NCBI RefSeq assembly: GCF_008386635.1
Contig: NZ_VUOE01000002.1
Location: 1,067,848-1,131,847 of the forward strand
Length of the DNA stretch: 64,000 nucleotides
Origin: Maribacter flavus
Lineage (GTDB): Bacteria > Bacteroidota > Bacteroidia > Flavobacteriales > Flavobacteriaceae
Direction: 5' to 3'
The notes under the pieces were generated by a model. The model saw nothing but the letters and a program-made list of their open reading frames with translations. It searched no databases and was not told the origin of the DNA. The position numbers and the translations under genes were made by a program. Shown one piece after another: positions 49,537 to 56,283 of this stretch; position 1 is the first letter of the stretch, and the number at the start of each line of letters is the position of its first letter.

Positions 49537-52386
49537 TTATGGTCTTGAAATACCGTTAATAAATGTTTCTACAAAGCGTAATATCTTATCAGTTACTCTT
49601 TCGGCGATAGGCGCTCTTTCCTTTAAGGCTGGTCTCTTATTTAAAAGTCCGATTACGTCATCTCGCAGCGGTTTCTTTTCCGTAAAGAGATAGTTGCCAA
49701 TTACTTCTTGAAGCTTTTCACTGTCCAAATTCTCTTCTTCACTTAATTTCTTGAGTGCTTCTTTCCGCTCCTCACTCCAATAATTTTCAAACTCTTCTGG
49801 AATATCGTCTGAATCTGAAATGTGCGGTAAGTTCTCTTGAATGAACTTCTCAATCAATTCTCGCTTACTTCTCAGTTGAGCGTCACCTGCAACAATTTCA
49901 ATCAGTGCTTTCTTCTGTTTCTCGTGTTCTTCTGGTGATGCGTCTTTCAGTTTTGCAAGTAGTTTTAAAATGTACGCAACATTGATTTCGTCACGATGAA
50001 TCAATTCCAATTCAAAATCAATATCACCTAAAATACTGACCTTCTCTTTCTGGTTCTGACTTTTTGCCTTGTCATATAAGTCGAGATACTTGCTTTTATA
50101 ATCTTCAAAAGATTGTTCAGTCATGGACAAGTCGGCAAACTGAAACTCGGTGAAGGTTGCTAATACGTTTTTCAATCGCATTAATTCACGGAAAGCTTGT
50201 ATGAATGATAATTCTTCCTCTTCGCTCGGCAAGTCATTGACACTGTTTACAGTTGGTGCAATCTCTAATAAAGAGATAAATGCTTGGTTGAATTTTGCCA
50301 CGTAATCTTCATACGGCTGCATGATGATTTCATCCTTGGCATTCTTATTTGAAAAAAGAGTTATGGCCTCATCTGTTGCATCTTTCAGGTTTCTAAAACA
50401 AACAATATTTCCTTGTGATTTTACTTCATTGAGAATTCGATTTGTTCTGGAATAGGCTTGAATCAATCCGTGATATTTAAGATTCTTGTCTACATAAAGC
50501 GTATTCAGGTGTTTGCTGTCAAAACCTGTCAGAAACATATTTACAACAACCAAAACATCAATTTGGCGGTGTTTTACACGTTTGGCTATGTCGTTGTAAT
50601 AGTTGTAGTATGATTGATTGTCTTTACTCGTGTAGTTTGTTCCAAACTGTTTGTTGTAGTGTTTGATGAAATCTTCTAATTCATCTCTTGTATGTTGAGT
50701 ATTGTATTCTGCATGGGGTTCAGCAGCCATTAAAAACTCATCATCATCTACAAAACCAACCGCATCTTTGTCTTCCTCATTTGCTGAATATGAAAAAATG
50801 GTTGCCAATCGAAGATTGTGCTTGCCTTCTTCTTTTTTCTTTAAAAGCAATTTGTAATACTCAATAAGAATGGGGACACTTGAAACGCAGAAAATAGCTG
50901 TAAACTCTCTGCTATGTGTCTTTCGATTATGATTAGCAATAATGTATTCGGTAATGTTGTCTAAACGCATGGGCGCATCCATTACTTCTTTTTCATCAAT
51001 GGCTTCTACATTGATGTCAAAAATTTCATCTTTCTTTTTGAAGGTTCTTATATATTCAACAGAGAACTTTAATACATTTTCATCCCTAATTGCGTCTGTG
51101 ATTACGTATTTATGCAAACAATCACCAAAAAGCATTTTTGTTGTTCGTTTACCATATTGGTTTGTACCTGCATTGGGTTCAAAGATGGGTGTACCTGTAA
51201 ACCCAAACATCTGGCATTCTGAAAAGAACTTCTTGATGTCTTCATGGGTTTTACCAAACTGACTTCTGTGGCACTCATCAAAAATGAATACAATTCGTTC
51301 GTTTCTCAGAGCTTCCATTTTACCCAAATAGCGGGTTTTGCTAATGGCAGTATTCAACTTTTGAATGGTCGTAACAATCAGTTTGTTATCGCCTGCAAGT
51401 TGTTTGACTAGGGTGTTGGTGTTATTAGTTCCATCAATACTTCCTTTACTGAAAGCATTAAATTCTTTTGTAGTTTGATAATCCAAGTCCTTGCGGTCTA
51501 CCACAAAAACTACTTTGTGCACCTCTTTTAAGTTGGTTAGGATTTGAGCCGCCTTGAAGGAAGTTAAGGTTTTACCCGATCCTGTGGTGTGCCAAATGTA
51601 ACCGTACTTGGTAGTTGTTTTTACCCGCTCTACAATATTCTCAACTGCATAGAATTGATAGGGGCGAAGCACCATCAATATTTTTTGCGATTCGTTGAGC
51701 ACCACATATTTGGTAATCATTTTAGAAATGTGGCAAGGCTCTAAAAACAAATCTGAAAATGCCGCCAATTGGGTAATCAAACGGTTTTTTTCGTCAGCCC
51801 AATAAAAAGTCTGTTTGAACGAGCGTGCTTTTAGTGGTGAGTTTGCATAGTACTTGGTGTTTACGCCATTGCTAATGACGAATATTTGTACAAATTGAAA
51901 CAAGCCATGACCTGCCCAATACGAATGTCTTTCGTAGCGATTGGTTTGGTTGAATGCTTCTTTAAGTTCTAAACCTCTTCGCTTCAATTCTATTTGAACC
52001 AATGGCAAACCATTAATGAGAATTGTTACATCATAGCGGTTTTTGTGCGTGCCTTTCATGGCGATTTGCTGCGTCACTTGAAACTCATTTTGGCACCAAT
52101 GAATTTGATTGATGAGTTCTACCGTTTTGGTATCGCCTTTGTCATTGGTATAAGGCACACGGTCTCGCAATATTTTAGCCCGTTCAAATACATTTCCCTT
52201 GTTGATGAAATTCAGGATTTGCTTAAAATCGTTATAGCTTAACTGTACTTTGTTGTGTTTTTCTAGTTGCTTTTTGAGATTAGCCAATAAGTCATTTTCA
52301 TCACGTATTACCACTTTTTTATAGCCTAACTTTTCAAGCTGAGTAACTAAGTTGTTTTCTAATATTTGTTCGGGCTGTGTGGTCAT
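49537..52386 (-). CDS. hsdR: Type I restriction enzyme R subunit
   Basis: A 949-residue subunit. N-terminal nuclease domain of the PD-(D/E)xK type (NRYDVTILINGLPLVQIELK, around 115-135). Helicase core: Walker A T268-GSGKT, DECHRSQFGK (DEAD-box II), MFGFTGTPIF (III) and QAYSRTNRI (VI). It cuts DNA after ATP-driven translocation from unmethylated sites. The C-terminal helical domain (869-949; YWSEERKEAL, YLFTEKKPLRDDV) is the part that in EcoR124-type enzymes contacts the methyltransferase. The start overlaps the stop of the Abi-like gene by 4 bases. The same 81-residue tail is present in that neighbour. Confidence 0.95.
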   Translation of the reverse strand: MTTQPEQILENNLVTQLEKLGYKKVVIRDENDLLANLKKQLEKHNKVQLSYNDFKQILNFINKGNVFERAKILRDRVPYTNDKGDTKTVELINQIHWCQNEFQVTQQIAMKGTHKNRYDVTILINGLPLVQIELKRRGLELKEAFNQTNRYERHSYWAGHGLFQFVQIFVISNGVNTKYYANSPLKARSFKQTFYWADEKNRLITQLAAFSDLFLEPCHISKMITKYVVLNESQKILMVLRPYQFYAVENIVERVKTTTKYGYIWHTTGSGKTLTSFKAAQILTNLKEVHKVVFVVDRKDLDYQTTKEFNAFSKGSIDGTNNTNTLVKQLAGDNKLIVTTIQKLNTAISKTRYLGKMEALRNERIVFIFDECHRSQFGKTHEDIKKFFSECQMFGFTGTPIFEPNAGTNQYGKRTTKMLFGDCLHKYVITDAIRDENVLKFSVEYIRTFKKKDEIFDINVEAIDEKEVMDAPMRLDNITEYIIANHNRKTHSREFTAIFCVSSVPILIEYYKLLLKKKEEGKHNLRLATIFSYSANEEDKDAVGFVDDDEFLMAAEPHAEYNTQHTRDELEDFIKHYNKQFGTNYTSKDNQSYYNYYNDIAKRVKHRQIDVLVVVNMFLTGFDSKHLNTLYVDKNLKYHGLIQAYSRTNRILNEVKSQGNIVCFRNLKDATDEAITLFSNKNAKDEIIMQPYEDYVAKFNQAFISLLEIAPTVNSVNDLPSEEEELSFIQAFRELMRLKNVLATFTEFQFADLSMTEQSFEDYKSKYLDLYDKAKSQNQKEKVSILGDIDFELELIHRDEINVAYILKLLAKLKDASPEEHEKQKKALIEIVAGDAQLRSKRELIEKFIQENLPHISDSDDIPEEFENYWSEERKEALKKLSEEENLDSEKLQEVIGNYLFTEKKPLRDDVIGLLNKRPALKERAPIAERVTDKILRFVETFINGISRP

Positions 52387-53465
52387 GCTTCTGCTTCTGG
52401 ATTTTTTAGGTCATTGGCAAAAGCCACTATTTTTTCTGTCAAATTTGGAACTACTGTTTTGAACTCTGATAGTTTTGGTCGTTCGTTCATGGTTTTAGCC
52501 ACATCGTCTCTTAATGGTGGTTTTTCGCTGAATAGATATTCATTAACCACCTCTATTAATTCTTCACTTTTTAAATTTTCTGCCTCTGCAAATTCTTGAA
52601 GAGCTCGATTCTTAGCCTCCGACCAAAAAGTATCTTCATCAAAGTCAGAAACTAGTTTTTCAATTATCTTTTCTTCTTGCTCTGCAGTCTTTTCTTTTTC
52701 AGCTGTAATGACGGCCGCTTCTTTTTTAGTTTCAACTGGTATTTTCTTCTTGATTTTAGATTCTCTTTTTGTCGCAGATATAAAAAGGCTATCAACAATG
52801 CTTGATACAGCCTCTTTTAATTCTTCTTCGATATCCTGACTGAATTCATTTCGAAACCTATTTTCATATTCATCATAATCATTTTCAAAAAGTAATTTGC
52901 TAAAACGTGCTTTTTTAATAGGAAATTCGACACTTTCATCGAGCCAATCATTATAAGCTTTCATTTTTTTTGAAGCATAGTCTAATGCACTGTCCGAAGT
53001 ATGGTTTAAACTGAAATAGTGTTCCAAGATATACTCTAACATACTGTCGGTCATATTCACAACTGTAGAAGCTAATTTGGAAGAACTGAATATGAATTTA
53101 GGTGCCATTCTGCCATGTGAAATATCGCTTCGTTTGTTTCTTATTTCACCAATCACCTGAATTATTGCAGAAAACCTAGCTGCAAAATCTCCATCTAAAT
53201 CTTCACATTCATCGGATAATATTCGCATTGCATCTTTGAACAATTTAGGTAAGTCATCTTTATCTATATTTTCGGTTGTTTTTGTGTTATCAAGGTTTAT
53301 AAGAATCGTTTTTGAGATACCTTCTACTAAAGCCTTACAACTTTCAATACAGACATCAGGATTAATGAGTGTATGCTCTTCTATTATTTCAATAATTTTG
53401 AAGTACTCCTCAAAATGAGAATGTTTTTCTGCGTTTGCTGATATCATGGCTCGGGTTTTCTCCAT
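52383..53465 (-). CDS. Abi_C/HEPN-like protein with an HsdR-type C-terminal docking domain
   Basis: A 360-residue protein started at ATG 53465, 1 base after the hsdS stop. Residues about 15-180 resemble the abortive-infection C-terminal (Abi_C) family: INPDVCIESCKALVEGISKT, AARFSAIIQVIGEIRNKRSD and then ISHGRM. R109/R112 and H117 give R-x7-H and R-x4-H, near the HEPN RNase motif R-x4-6-H. A helical middle (about 185-235) and a Lys/Glu-rich linker follow. Residues 280-360 match the last 81 residues of HsdR without gaps (35 of the first 76 positions identical by hand). The gene overlaps hsdR by 4 bases. By position it equals PrrC in the prr locus. Probable guarded effector; activity unproven. 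Confidence 0.8.
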   Translation of the reverse strand: MEKTRAMISANAEKHSHFEEYFKIIEIIEEHTLINPDVCIESCKALVEGISKTILINLDNTKTTENIDKDDLPKLFKDAMRILSDECEDLDGDFAARFSAIIQVIGEIRNKRSDISHGRMAPKFIFSSSKLASTVVNMTDSMLEYILEHYFSLNHTSDSALDYASKKMKAYNDWLDESVEFPIKKARFSKLLFENDYDEYENRFRNEFSQDIEEELKEAVSSIVDSLFISATKRESKIKKKIPVETKKEAAVITAEKEKTAEQEEKIIEKLVSDFDEDTFWSEAKNRALQEFAEAENLKSEELIEVVNEYLFSEKPPLRDDVAKTMNERPKLSEFKTVVPNLTEKIVAFANDLKNPEAEA

Positions 53466-53466
53466 A

Positions 53467-54711
53467 TCACACAAACATTTTTTGAAGTAAACCCTTTTTG
53501 TATTCCATTGAAGCGTCAATTTCATTCTCAATTGATTCAATTGAATCATCCAAAGAAGTTAAAAATTCAGCTATTTTGATTTGTTCTTTCTCTCTTGGCA
53601 GAAATACTTTCAGTTTCATTAATTCTACCTTAGACATATTGAACCGTGTACTTCCTTGTGCTAGTTTTATTATTTCTCTTCTAAAAAGTGCACTTCTGAA
53701 CAAGTAGCGAGAAAAGTATGGAACAAGTTCAGAAAGTGAATTCGGGCGAAATCCAAAGCAAAAGCTATTTAAGAATACATCTCCAATTTCATCAAGCATA
53801 ACAGAAGCAGTACCTATTTCATTTGGCGTTTCTGAGGAAGTCGTAAAGAACACATCCCCATATTGAACCTTGCTTTGATTTTCTCCTTCATCAATTTTAA
53901 CTAGACCAAAGTCCTCAATGATAATTTTAGAATTACTGAAAATTTGCATGTATTGTACATAAGGTTTTCCTTCTCCAAAATCATCTTTGGTTTTACCTGT
54001 TAAGCCATTAAATGTTGCTCCAATTTCTCCCAACCTCTTCTCCTCCCAATCAGGAAAGTCATTACCGTTTTCATTTTTAAAGCGGATTTCTTGCGAAAAG
54101 AGTTTTTGCATCACGCCTTTCTTGTACTCTTCAAGCTTGGCTTTTTTCTTTTGCAAGAGTTGGATGCGTGCGTCAACTGCTGTTAGGAATGAGGCTATTT
54201 TTTGTTGTTCGGGGGTATCAGTAGGAAGATGAAGCTTGGTTTCTCGTATTGTTCGAAGCGATAGATTTTTTATTGTTGAACCTGTCAGCTCAGAATGGAA
54301 AAACGCTTGAATCTTTCTTGTTGATAGGTAATTGAATACATAACTAATCTCAAAGTCAGGTAACAGATTTATATAAGCTGCACTTTTGCCCAACATTACT
54401 GGTTCATTGTTGTAATATGCAAGATTTCCAATTGTTCCATTGATAGACATTAGAATAGTTCTGTCATTCAATTCGCGGTAGTGCTTTTGTTGTTCTTCCT
54501 CTGAAACTTTCTTGGTGGTTTCGGTTATTTCAATTCTACCATTAGACAAGTTATTTCCATTTACAAAGAAGTATGCACCTTCTTCGTCATATTGAGGTGT
54601 GCCATGAATTCCATCTCCAATTCTTGATGACATTTTCTCTAATGTTAGAGTTTCCCAATTATTCTCAAATTCAGGAAATCTCAACAAAGGTGTTAATTGT
54701 ACTTCTGCCAT
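53467..54711 (-). CDS. hsdS: Type I restriction-modification specificity subunit
   Basis: A 414-residue S subunit with two target-recognition domains (about 10-150 and 215-365), each followed by a long helix. The first spacer reads LPTDTPEQQKIASFLTAVDARIQLLQKKK (in parts) and ends KGVMQKLFSQ; the second reads EQIKIAEFLTSLDDSIESI and ends KGLLQKMFV. This internal repeat is the mark of EcoR124-like (type IC) HsdS. It sets the bipartite recognition sequence; the target cannot be read off. It lies 3 bases after hsdM and 1 base before the Abi-like gene. Confidence 0.94.
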   Translation of the reverse strand: MAEVQLTPLLRFPEFENNWETLTLEKMSSRIGDGIHGTPQYDEEGAYFFVNGNNLSNGRIEITETTKKVSEEEQQKHYRELNDRTILMSINGTIGNLAYYNNEPVMLGKSAAYINLLPDFEISYVFNYLSTRKIQAFFHSELTGSTIKNLSLRTIRETKLHLPTDTPEQQKIASFLTAVDARIQLLQKKKAKLEEYKKGVMQKLFSQEIRFKNENGNDFPDWEEKRLGEIGATFNGLTGKTKDDFGEGKPYVQYMQIFSNSKIIIEDFGLVKIDEGENQSKVQYGDVFFTTSSETPNEIGTASVMLDEIGDVFLNSFCFGFRPNSLSELVPYFSRYLFRSALFRREIIKLAQGSTRFNMSKVELMKLKVFLPREKEQIKIAEFLTSLDDSIESIENEIDASMEYKKGLLQKMFV

Positions 54712-54714
54712 AAT

Positions 54715-56283
54715 TTAAAATGGTGTTGAGATATTCAGTTCAGCACAGAATTCTGCAATGGTTTCATTGGTGCTTTGCAAATCGCTTTCAATGGTTTTCA
54801 ATTCCGCAGAAACTGCATCCAAGTCCACAGGCTCCTCTTCTTCAAACGTATCCACATAGCGTGGAATATTCAGGTTGTAATCGTTTTCGGCTATTTCAGC
54901 CAAAGGGGCTACATAGCTGTATTTGTCTACTGTTTCCCGGTTGCGATAGGTATTTACAATACGTTCTACATCTTCATCTCGCAATACGTTTTGGTTGCCT
55001 TCTTTTACAAAATGGTCGTCTCCGCTGGCATCAATAAACACAATGTTGTCATCTACCTCACGGCATTTTTTAAGTACTAGAATACAGGTAGGAATAGAGG
55101 TGCCGTAAAAGATATTGGCAGGTAACCCAATCACAGCATCCAAGGCGTTCATTTCTTTAATGATGTACTCACGGATATGCCCTTCGGCTGCTCCTCTAAA
55201 CAAAACGCCATGCGGAAATACACTTGCCATTATGCCATTGTCTGCCAACTGATAGAGCATGTGGGTTAAAAAGGCGTAATCTGCTTTGGTTTTAGGTGCT
55301 AAACGTCCATATTGGCTAAAGCGTTCGTCCGTATTAAACAATGGATTGGCATCACTTTTCCAATGAGCAGAAAAAGGCGGGTTGGCTACCACTGCTTCAA
55401 AGCGTTTGTCTAAATGTTGCGGATTTTCCAAGGTGTCTTCCTGCATAATGTTGAACTCACGGAAATGCACATCATGCAAAATCATGTTCATGCGGGCAAG
55501 GTTGTAGGTGGTGCGTCCTAATTCTTGTCCGTAAAACTCACTTACATCAGCTTCTTTAGCTACTCGTAAAAGCAAAGAACCCGAACCACAAGTTGGGTCA
55601 TAAACGGATTTTATTTTTGATTTCCCTGTGGTAACAATTTTGGCTAGTATTTTAGAAACCTGTTGAGGCGTGTAGAATTCTCCTGCTGTTTTTCCTGCTC
55701 CTGCTGCAAATTTGGCTATCAAGTATTCGTAAGCATCACCCAACACATCCGATTCAATTTCTTCTAATTTGAAATCAATCTTGTCCAAATACATCAAGAT
55801 TTTTACAATGATTTCATTTCGAGCACCAACTGTTCTTCCAATTTTGGTTGAGTTCAAATCCAAGTCTTCAAACAATGCGTTAAAGTCCTCTTCGGATTCT
55901 GTACCCATAGTACTTTGCTCAATATGATTAAGCACAGATTTTAGGTCTTCTAAAATGTAGTTGCTTTCGCTTTCTGTGTCTGCATTTCCTTTAGCAGCTA
56001 ATACTGAAAAAAGTTGAGAAGGCTCTAAGAAATAACCCAATTTCAGTAAAGACTCCTCCTTGATGGCTTCTAAGGTGTCTTGGTCAGTTACTTTTGTGTA
56101 ATCAGTTACCGCTTCACCAACAAGCAATTCATTGGCATAGAGCAATTGCTTTTCTGATAGGTATTTGTAAAAGATAAAACCAAGTATGTAATCGCGGTAA
56201 TCGTCCGCACTTATTTTTCCTCTGAGTAAGTTGGCAATGCCCCACAATTGGCTTTCCAATAGTTTCTTTTGGTCTTCAGACAT
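54715..56283 (-). CDS. hsdM: Type I restriction-modification methyltransferase subunit
   Basis: A 522-residue N6-adenine methyltransferase. The N-terminal helical domain (SQLWGIANLLRGKISADDYR, FIFYKYLSEKQ) contacts HsdS. The SAM site reads GEFYTPQQVSKILAKIV and then DPTCGSGSLLLRVAKEA. The catalytic N301-PPF304 follows in VVANPPFSAHW. The family length matches EcoR124 HsdM. M2S methylates the target on both strands and is the platform for HsdR. It starts 4 bases after the XRE regulator gene, so the operon is regulator - M - S - Abi-like - R. Confidence 0.95.
   Translation of the reverse strand: MSEDQKKLLESQLWGIANLLRGKISADDYRDYILGFIFYKYLSEKQLLYANELLVGEAVTDYTKVTDQDTLEAIKEESLLKLGYFLEPSQLFSVLAAKGNADTESESNYILEDLKSVLNHIEQSTMGTESEEDFNALFEDLDLNSTKIGRTVGARNEIIVKILMYLDKIDFKLEEIESDVLGDAYEYLIAKFAAGAGKTAGEFYTPQQVSKILAKIVTTGKSKIKSVYDPTCGSGSLLLRVAKEADVSEFYGQELGRTTYNLARMNMILHDVHFREFNIMQEDTLENPQHLDKRFEAVVANPPFSAHWKSDANPLFNTDERFSQYGRLAPKTKADYAFLTHMLYQLADNGIMASVFPHGVLFRGAAEGHIREYIIKEMNALDAVIGLPANIFYGTSIPTCILVLKKCREVDDNIVFIDASGDDHFVKEGNQNVLRDEDVERIVNTYRNRETVDKYSYVAPLAEIAENDYNLNIPRYVDTFEEEEPVDLDAVSAELKTIESDLQSTNETIAEFCAELNISTPF

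What the first reader, a model, noticed from the sequence alone, without database searches (positions are those of the whole stretch)
52383..53465. An Abi-like protein carries a copy of the HsdR C-terminal docking domain
Residues 280-360 of the Abi_C-like protein align gap-free with residues 869-949 of the HsdR encoded next door, both ending exactly at the protein terminus. Shared blocks include WSE, YLFxEKxPLRDDV and N-x-RP; I count 35 identities in the first 76 positions. In EcoR124-type enzymes the C-terminal helical region of HsdR is what joins the methyltransferase. The Abi-like protein could therefore dock on the M2S core, compete with HsdR and be held inactive or released when the complex is disturbed, for example by a phage anti-restriction protein. 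I know of no described system with this shared tail.
Basis: partly seen in the sequence, partly recalled or inferred. Interest (0 to 1): 0.93.

Follow-up and report, generated by a model that had tools for sequence, protein, structure and literature searches.

The report
Toxin-like proteins borrowing restriction enzyme's tail
Inside a bacterial DNA-cutting defence operon sits a probable RNA-cutting suicide protein that ends in a diverged copy of the cutting subunit's own tail, and relatives show the same tail on an unrelated effector in the same gene slot, which suggests a reusable docking tag.

Summary
The gene at 52383-53465 (minus strand, 360 aa) lies between hsdS and hsdR of an EcoR124-type operon. 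Residues 280-360 align gap-free with HsdR 869-949: 35 identities in 76; BLASTP E=2e-18; Pfam finds Abi_C and EcoR124_C in the one protein. The N-domain looks HEPN-like and keeps the R..H motif. It is not a one-off: two more Abi+tail genes (L115, L116) and two FRG-domain+tail genes (L045, L058) occupy the same hsdS-hsdR slot in related genomes, whereas Abi relatives elsewhere sit there without a tail. The five accessory tails group together (100/99), share a motif absent from 75 HsdR tails, nest in one HsdR subclade holding all their cognate HsdRs, and occur only beside it (5/15 vs 0/49 operons; biased sampling). One FRG pair shows purifying selection on the tail. Most likely the tail is a portable docking module tethering latent effectors to the R-M core, PrrC-like; docking, masking and RNase activity are inferred. 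Against exclusivity, one tail lies in a mobile-element polyvalent protein away from hsd genes. Embedded genes in this slot and HEPN/R-M coupling are known; I found no print on the shared tail.

The parts
52383..53465 (-). Abi_C/HEPN-like protein with HsdR-like C-terminal tail (360 aa, P0001)
52821..53465 (-). HEPN-like (Abi_C) effector domain, about residues 1-215; R109, S116, H117, G118 invariant in the 10 aligned sequences; tailless relatives end about here
52659..52820 (-). charged linker, about residues 216-269, mostly low model confidence
52386..52658 (-). HsdR-like tail, about residues 270-360 (four helices predicted within 283-353); contains the accessory-tail motif F.E..FW
49537..52386 (-). 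HsdR (949 aa), EcoR124_C family
49540..49782 (-). HsdR C-terminal segment homologous to the Abi tail (residues 869-949)
53467..54711 (-). HsdS (414 aa), two Methylase_S stretches
54715..56283 (-). HsdM (522 aa), HsdM_N and N6_Mtase
52383..52386 (-). ATGA overlap of Abi stop and HsdR start (suggests translational coupling)

Best explanation
The operon encodes an EcoR124-like (type IC) restriction-modification complex plus a built-in second-line effector. The effector is a HEPN-like (Abi_C) protein, probably an RNase, tethered to the complex by a diverged HsdR C-terminal tail. The tail is a portable docking module: it probably descends from the HsdR tail of one HsdR subclade and is found on at least two unrelated effectors, HEPN and FRG, in the same gene slot. 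Inferred working: the tail uses all or part of the HsdR docking surface on HsdM2-HsdS, for instance at the weakly held second HsdR site, where it keeps the effector local and latent. When the complex is disturbed by a phage anti-restriction protein, or engages unmodified DNA, the HEPN domain is freed or activated and stops translation, as PrrC does when EcoprrI is inhibited. Shown: homology, architecture, recurrence, slot, subclade association, selection on one FRG tail pair. Inferred: docking, latency, trigger, RNase activity.
For: Homology. Two more Abi+tail genes and two FRG+tail genes in the hsdS-hsdR slot. Abi relatives without a tail in the same slot (L032, L033, L034, L047, L048, L050, L105; also L139-L141, and L049 beside a HsdR without a detected tail). 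Tail presence follows the HsdR subclade: 5 of 15 operons inside, 0 of 49 outside; Abi alone 3 of 3 inside tailed, 0 of 7 outside. Accessory tails form one group (100/99); motif F.E..FW in 5 of 5 and 0 of 75 HsdR tails. FRG tail dN/dS 0.085, FRG body 0.067, HsdR tail 0.053 (one pair). Retention of HsdR consensus is concentrated in the YLFxEKxPLxD...RPxLKER segment (47 of 70 cells vs 36 of 115; hand sums, test). R..H motif and HEPN-like fold. HsdR C-terminal region implicated in assembly; PrrC precedent.
Against: No complex was modelled or measured. Seven of the ten Abi genes in the survey use the slot without a tail, so a tail is not needed for the gene to live there. Accessory tails differ from HsdR in the first and last helices, with changes such as D299 to K/N and K302 to E/A, so the partner could differ. 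A tail also occurs in a polyvalent protein away from hsd genes. Single origin is not firm: AU does not reject Abi tail + own HsdR for the window (p 0.139), L116 (0.347) or L115 (0.096), the FRG test did not finish, and long branches meet. dN/dS could be judged on one pair only; the window/L116 Abi pair is near saturation (tail 0.47, body 0.25). L115 and L116 match no Pfam family at E 0.01, neither Abi_C nor EcoR124_C; they are linked by BLAST (3.7e-21 and 1.0e-48) and by the tail profile (1e-18 and 2e-13), which did not contain them. The subclade was named after the tree was seen, and loci were found by similarity to the window.
Confidence: 0.5

Rival explanations
1. The tail is a recombination relic: a read-through fusion to a piece of hsdR left when a neighbouring hsdR was lost, without function.
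For: It lies immediately upstream of hsdR; HsdR C-terminal fragments without a complete HsdR were met several times (L051, L052, L070, L118, L142).
Against: Found on two unrelated effectors, five genes with a shared motif; dN/dS 0.085 in the one FRG tail pair; the Abi tail still has the predicted helix pattern at 49% DNA identity.
Confidence: 0.1
2. The tail binds DNA rather than the methyltransferase and carries the effector to DNA handled by the R-M complex.
For: I recall that the EcoR124I HsdR C-terminal domain paper (Grinkevich 2018) reports roles in both complex assembly and DNA binding; that paper is not held.
Against: A DNA-binding tag would not need to follow one HsdR subclade. No DNA-binding test was possible.
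Confidence: 0.15
3. The tail pairs with HsdR itself, or acts in cis as an inhibitor of the effector domain, so that HsdR level or assembly controls the toxin.
For: Accessory tails carry consistent residue changes against HsdR tails, including at 299 and 302; abi and hsdR overlap as ATGA.
Against: FRG, an unrelated domain, carries the same tail, which argues against a HEPN-specific cis inhibitor.
Confidence: 0.15
4. An ordinary embedded defence gene: the Abi protein works independently of the R-M complex, and the tail only helps folding or stability.
For: Many unrelated genes sit in this slot without a tail (52 of 64 operons have an ORF of 150 aa or more there); TgvAB inside a V. cholerae type I operon protects without HsdR nuclease activity (PMC11411939, passages).
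Against: Does not explain why the tails are HsdR-like and go with one HsdR subclade.
Confidence: 0.1

Closest known systems
PrrC / EcoprrI (latent tRNA-Lys anticodon nuclease in a type IC operon)
   Same: HEPN-class nuclease gene embedded in a type IC hsd operon; physically associated and silenced, activated by T4 Stp (PMC2610378, PMC3710099, PMC3874165, PMC12707154, passages). That prrC lies between hsdS and hsdR is recalled.
   Different: PrrC has an N-terminal ABC ATPase, of which Pfam finds no sign here. No HsdR-like tail is described for PrrC in the passages I read; I did not test PrrC sequences.
HEPN proteins linked to R-M operons (at least 16 clades; AbiJ solos in R-M operons)
   Same: HEPN toxin gene in an R-M operon, proposed PrrC-like coupling (PMC3710099, passages).
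   Different: The passages describe fusions of HEPN to nucleases and helicases, not to an HsdR C-terminal tail; the word HsdR has no occurrence in the main text.
Defence genes embedded between hsdS and hsdR (TgvAB, DarTG2/RptR island, RloF; Payne 2024 embedding study)
   Same: Same slot or kind of slot; embedded effectors of several kinds (PMC11411939, PMC12255303, passages). The G409 FRG protein falls in PADLOC PDC-S15.
   Different: No shared HsdR tail in the passages read. The Payne preprint is not held; known through citations.
EcoR124I HsdR C-terminal domain (PDB 5j3n, 6h2j, 7bst)
   Same: Family of the tail by sequence (EcoR124_C) and fold of the cognate HsdR by model.
   Different: Only about the last 85-100 residues are present in the accessory proteins, without nuclease or motor.

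Membership tests
Abi_C / HEPN RNase superfamily | Match to the Abi_C profile above its cut-off | tested here: met
   P0001 26.5 bits vs 24; the tailed relatives L115 and L116 do not match it at E 0.01
Abi_C / HEPN RNase superfamily | Conserved R and H catalytic motif | tested here: met
   R109, S116, H117, G118 invariant in 10 aligned sequences
Abi_C / HEPN RNase superfamily | HEPN helical fold | tested here: inconclusive
Abi_C / HEPN RNase superfamily | RNase activity | not testable with these tools
   no assay
EcoR124_C (HsdR C-terminal) domain | Match to PF12008 above cut-off in a non-HsdR protein | tested here: met
   Met by 2 of 5 tailed proteins: P0001 28.0 bits and L058 FRG 30.7 bits vs 23.1. 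Not listed for G409 FRG at E 0.1 nor for L115 and L116 at E 0.01; these match the Abi tail by BLAST (2.4e-19) or the tail profile
EcoR124_C (HsdR C-terminal) domain | Binds HsdM/HsdS | not testable with these tools
   no complex prediction available
PrrC/EcoprrI | HEPN-type gene inside a type IC hsd operon | tested here: met
   M-S-Abi-R with EcoR124-type HsdR
PrrC/EcoprrI | N-terminal ABC ATPase domain | tested here: not met
   no ATPase family among the four Pfam matches up to E 1
PrrC/EcoprrI | Masked by the R-M complex and released by an anti-restriction factor | not testable with these tools
   needs experiment
Type IC (EcoR124-like) R-M system | HsdM, HsdS with two target domains, HsdR with nuclease, motor and EcoR124_C | tested here: met

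The most novel reading that the evidence does not exclude
The HsdR C-terminal tail is a transferable docking tag, so that the M2S core is a common scaffold on which restriction motor (HsdR), HEPN RNase and FRG effectors are interchangeable, tail-matched clients; mobile elements exploit the same socket with a tail-bearing polyvalent protein (L060) as a decoy.
Probability: 0.3. Interest if true: 0.87.

Novelty: new variant of a known kind. Interest (0 to 1): 0.74.

Why it matters
PrrC is the worked-out example of an effector embedded in, and controlled by, a type I R-M complex. A physical tag shared between the restriction subunit and unrelated effectors would give a direct, testable handle: it predicts which embedded genes are coupled to the complex, where they bind, and that second-line effectors can be exchanged with a short tail. 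It would also suggest how an R-M system could report its own inhibition by phage proteins.

Tried and rejected
Recent duplication of the hsdR 3' end: rejected, DNA identity of the two tails is 49%. Chance: rejected. Tail copies elsewhere in the genome: none besides abi and hsdR at E<=0.01. Tails in the phage collection: no match with the Abi tail or the giant's tail. Viral contigs: the Abi protein and tail profile A1 gave no relative; the Abi profile gave three loci, all tailless; the polyvalent N-terminus and the FRG body gave none. Plasmid hits not annotated as HsdR and opened by me (Thioclava L070, Thiothrix L142, Thauera L143) proved to be HsdR fragments or a broken hsdR; two Persicobacter hits were not opened. 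Weak tail-like matches in other slot ORFs (best domain E 0.0067, L096, internal, full-protein E 0.33) were not accepted. Tailed Abi domains as one clade: not recovered in the best tree, not rejected (AU 0.456). The model of the Abi protein is poor; Foldseek found nothing at E<=0.001 and no HsdR is among the 50 rows shown; its tail was barely tested by VIA-align. Alignment A8 was misaligned and not used; A6, used for the model, has two rows misaligned in the tail region. Papers not held: Gao 2020 and Grinkevich 2018; what I say of them is recalled. For print on a shared tail I looked at the listings (titles and abstract starts) and saw none; one search found no paper with EcoR124_C, PF12008 or 'HsdR-like C-terminal'. 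Nine papers were opened for passages only.

Sampling limits: tailed loci were found through tail- or Abi-based searches, so 5 of 64 operons is not a prevalence. In the broadest tail-profile scan of the family, 32 of 249 genomes had a match and 3 of those 32 had an Abi+tail gene (own, G1114, G1152); of the other short ORFs, G1130 proved to be a broken HsdR, G1099 an HsdR-like fragment, and G1299 and G1304 were not examined. Scans score a limited number of candidates per genome (4). The genome-contig scan used two narrow peptide patterns. The 96 slot ORFs were pulled by length and include at least three from outside the slot. Operons were parsed only where exactly one HsdR over 900 aa with a tail was found: 72, of which 8 incomplete were dropped. 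Other phyla were not scanned genome-wide (searches failed). The conservation count used 15 subclade HsdRs; its alignment left out the giant, two fragments and L108/L109. The 83-row tree has only 92 columns.
Full report
What is there. The window carries, on the minus strand, hsdM (54715-56283), hsdS (53467-54711), the Abi-like gene (52383-53465) and hsdR (49537-52386). Abi stop and HsdR start overlap as ATGA and hsdS ends one base before the Abi ATG. HsdR is EcoR124-like: PDB matches to EcoR124 HsdR at about 1e-177, EcoR124_C 250 bits. The Abi protein matches Abi_C at 98-148 and EcoR124_C at 252-351, both above the curated cut-offs.

The observation. BLASTP gives 44/123, E=2e-18; 1000 shuffles reach at most 66 against 188 observed. 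DNA identity is 49%, so the tails parted long ago. No third copy was found in the genome at E<=0.01.

Relatives without a tail. In a class-wide scan of 395 genomes (32 with any match) the Abi domain was found in three others at E below 1e-12 (G312, G262, G359; one more weak partial match, G252), with proteins of 206-215 aa, while the tail region hit HsdRs or HsdR fragments. G565 is a fourth. In the plasmid search (28 records with a match) I opened four Abi records: in two Acinetobacter and one Sinorhizobium plasmid the gene lies between hsdS and hsdR without a tail; in the Paracoccus record no hsd operon lies around it. L047, L048, L050 and L105 show M-S-Abi-R without a tail, as do viral-contig loci L139-L141 (L139 with another ORF before a cut hsdR; L141 with a partial Abi ORF). 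L049 has a tailless Abi beside a HsdR in which no tail was found. So the Abi gene is a habitual resident of this slot, and the tail is an addition that starts where the relatives end.

Other tailed proteins. G409 (L045) has M-S-X-R where X is an FRG-domain protein (Pfam FRG 5.9e-19; PADLOC PDC-S15) whose last 85 residues match the Abi tail (42%, 2.4e-19). The one scan of the genome-contig collection with the two accessory tails, by two narrow peptide patterns, returned that locus again and Flavivirga amylovorans (L058), with FRG 93% and tail 88% identical to G409's. A family scan with a wider tail profile (249 genomes, 32 with a match) gave two further Abi+tail genes: L115 (352 aa; a pentapeptide-repeat gene lies between it and hsdR) and L116 (378 aa). 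Neither reaches a Pfam family at E 0.01. A scan of 397 family genomes with the L116 protein returned only these three Abi+tail genes at E<=1e-6; two congeners of the window had no match.

Slot survey. Of 72 operons parsed, 64 had M, S and R complete; 52 of 64 have a same-strand ORF of at least 150 aa between S and R, 9 have none of 90 aa or more. Abi is there in 10 (3 tailed), FRG in 2 (both tailed), and no other slot ORF has an accepted tail. Other residents examined include Abi_2/AbiD, Fic, PD-(D/E)XK, DUF4268, DUF2971, pentapeptide-repeat and integrase genes. Sampling was by similarity to the window, so these are not prevalences.

Where the tails come from. In a tree of 83 tails (92 columns) the five accessory tails form one group (100/99) inside a group of 20 (98/81) that holds the HsdR tails of all five cognate systems. 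All five share F.E..FW, found in none of 75 HsdR tails. Each of the five scores higher against some accessory tail of another system than against any of the 75 HsdR tails; the cognate HsdR ranks 1 (window), 8 (L116), 17 (L115), 5 (L045) and 7 (L058). AU tests do not reject origin from the cognate HsdR for window, L116 or L115, the FRG test did not finish, and long branches meet. I read this as a probable, not proven, single origin followed by a swap between effectors. Tailed genes occur in 5 of 15 operons of the HsdR subclade and 0 of 49 others (Fisher 0.0004; 0.0017 with the two FRG loci counted once); for Abi alone 3 of 3 against 0 of 7 (0.008). The subclade was named after the tree was seen.

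Constraint. Between G409 and Flavivirga, dN/dS is 0.085 in the FRG tail (dS 0.68), 0.067 in the FRG body and 0.053 in the HsdR tail. The Abi pair window/L116 is too diverged to judge (tail 0.47, body 0.25, same call). Accessory residues keep the HsdR consensus at 83 of 185 cells in the 37 columns conserved at 80% or more in the subclade, and 73 of 280 elsewhere; by my hand sum of that table, 47 of 70 in the segment 310-335 (YLFxEKxPLxD...RPxLKER) and 36 of 115 outside it (Fisher 2e-6; the five sequences are not independent). The first and last helices have changed in a consistent way.

Mechanism. [quoted passage not shown] PMC2878639 says the C-terminal domain is believed important for binding HsdR to HsdS-HsdM; PMC12707154 notes a C-terminal HsdR mutation that alters conversion of R1 to R2 complexes. 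PrrC is embedded in a type IC operon, silenced by EcoprrI and activated by Stp, and HEPN genes in R-M operons were proposed to work alike. I infer that the tail tethers the HEPN (or FRG) effector to the core, perhaps at a vacant HsdR site, and that disturbance or engagement of the complex frees it. None of these last steps is shown.

Against. A tail also occurs at 271-346 of a 2534-aa methylase/SNF2 protein (L060) next to polyvalent-protein genes, in a genome in which it was the only tail at E<=1e-4. It could be an anti-restriction decoy, but it shows that the tail is not confined to hsd operons. It was not found in the three congeners held.

Novelty. Embedding of defence genes between hsdS and hsdR and HEPN/R-M coupling are in print. 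I saw no paper on an HsdR tail shared by embedded effectors in the listings, and one search found no paper naming the domain, in a library without most subscription journals and without bioRxiv.

Noticed in passing
L060:2716-10320 (G959), tail at residues 271-346: Giant polyvalent methylase/SNF2 protein carries an HsdR-like tail near its N-terminus; neighbouring genes have LPD1, LPD3 and ART-PolyVal domains. Possible anti-restriction decoy of the HsdR docking site.
   Followed up: partly
L051:4169-4552 and L118:9853-10197: Stretches matching only HsdR from residue 821-823 onward, with no other HsdR piece in the fetched stretch: free-standing C-terminal domains or relics.
   Followed up: partly
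L112:7144-9949 and L143:5422-8255: Two hsdR genes are interrupted at about residues 776-815, just upstream of the C-terminal domain.
   Followed up: no
L072, L076, L093, L097, L098, L099, L100, L133: A family of about 307-321 aa (Phage_integrase in L093; clustering) sits in the hsdS-hsdR slot beside an opposite-strand second hsdS: likely specificity-switching systems.
   Followed up: no
L045:316-1877 and L058:4207-5768: Two conserved genes just upstream of hsdM look like an AbiEi/AbiEii-type pair (recalled resemblance, not tested).
   Followed up: no
L111:4571-5938 and L115:8993-10204: Pentapeptide-repeat proteins (Pfam) of one family occupy the hsdS-hsdR slot; six members by clustering, Pfam run on two.
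   Followed up: no
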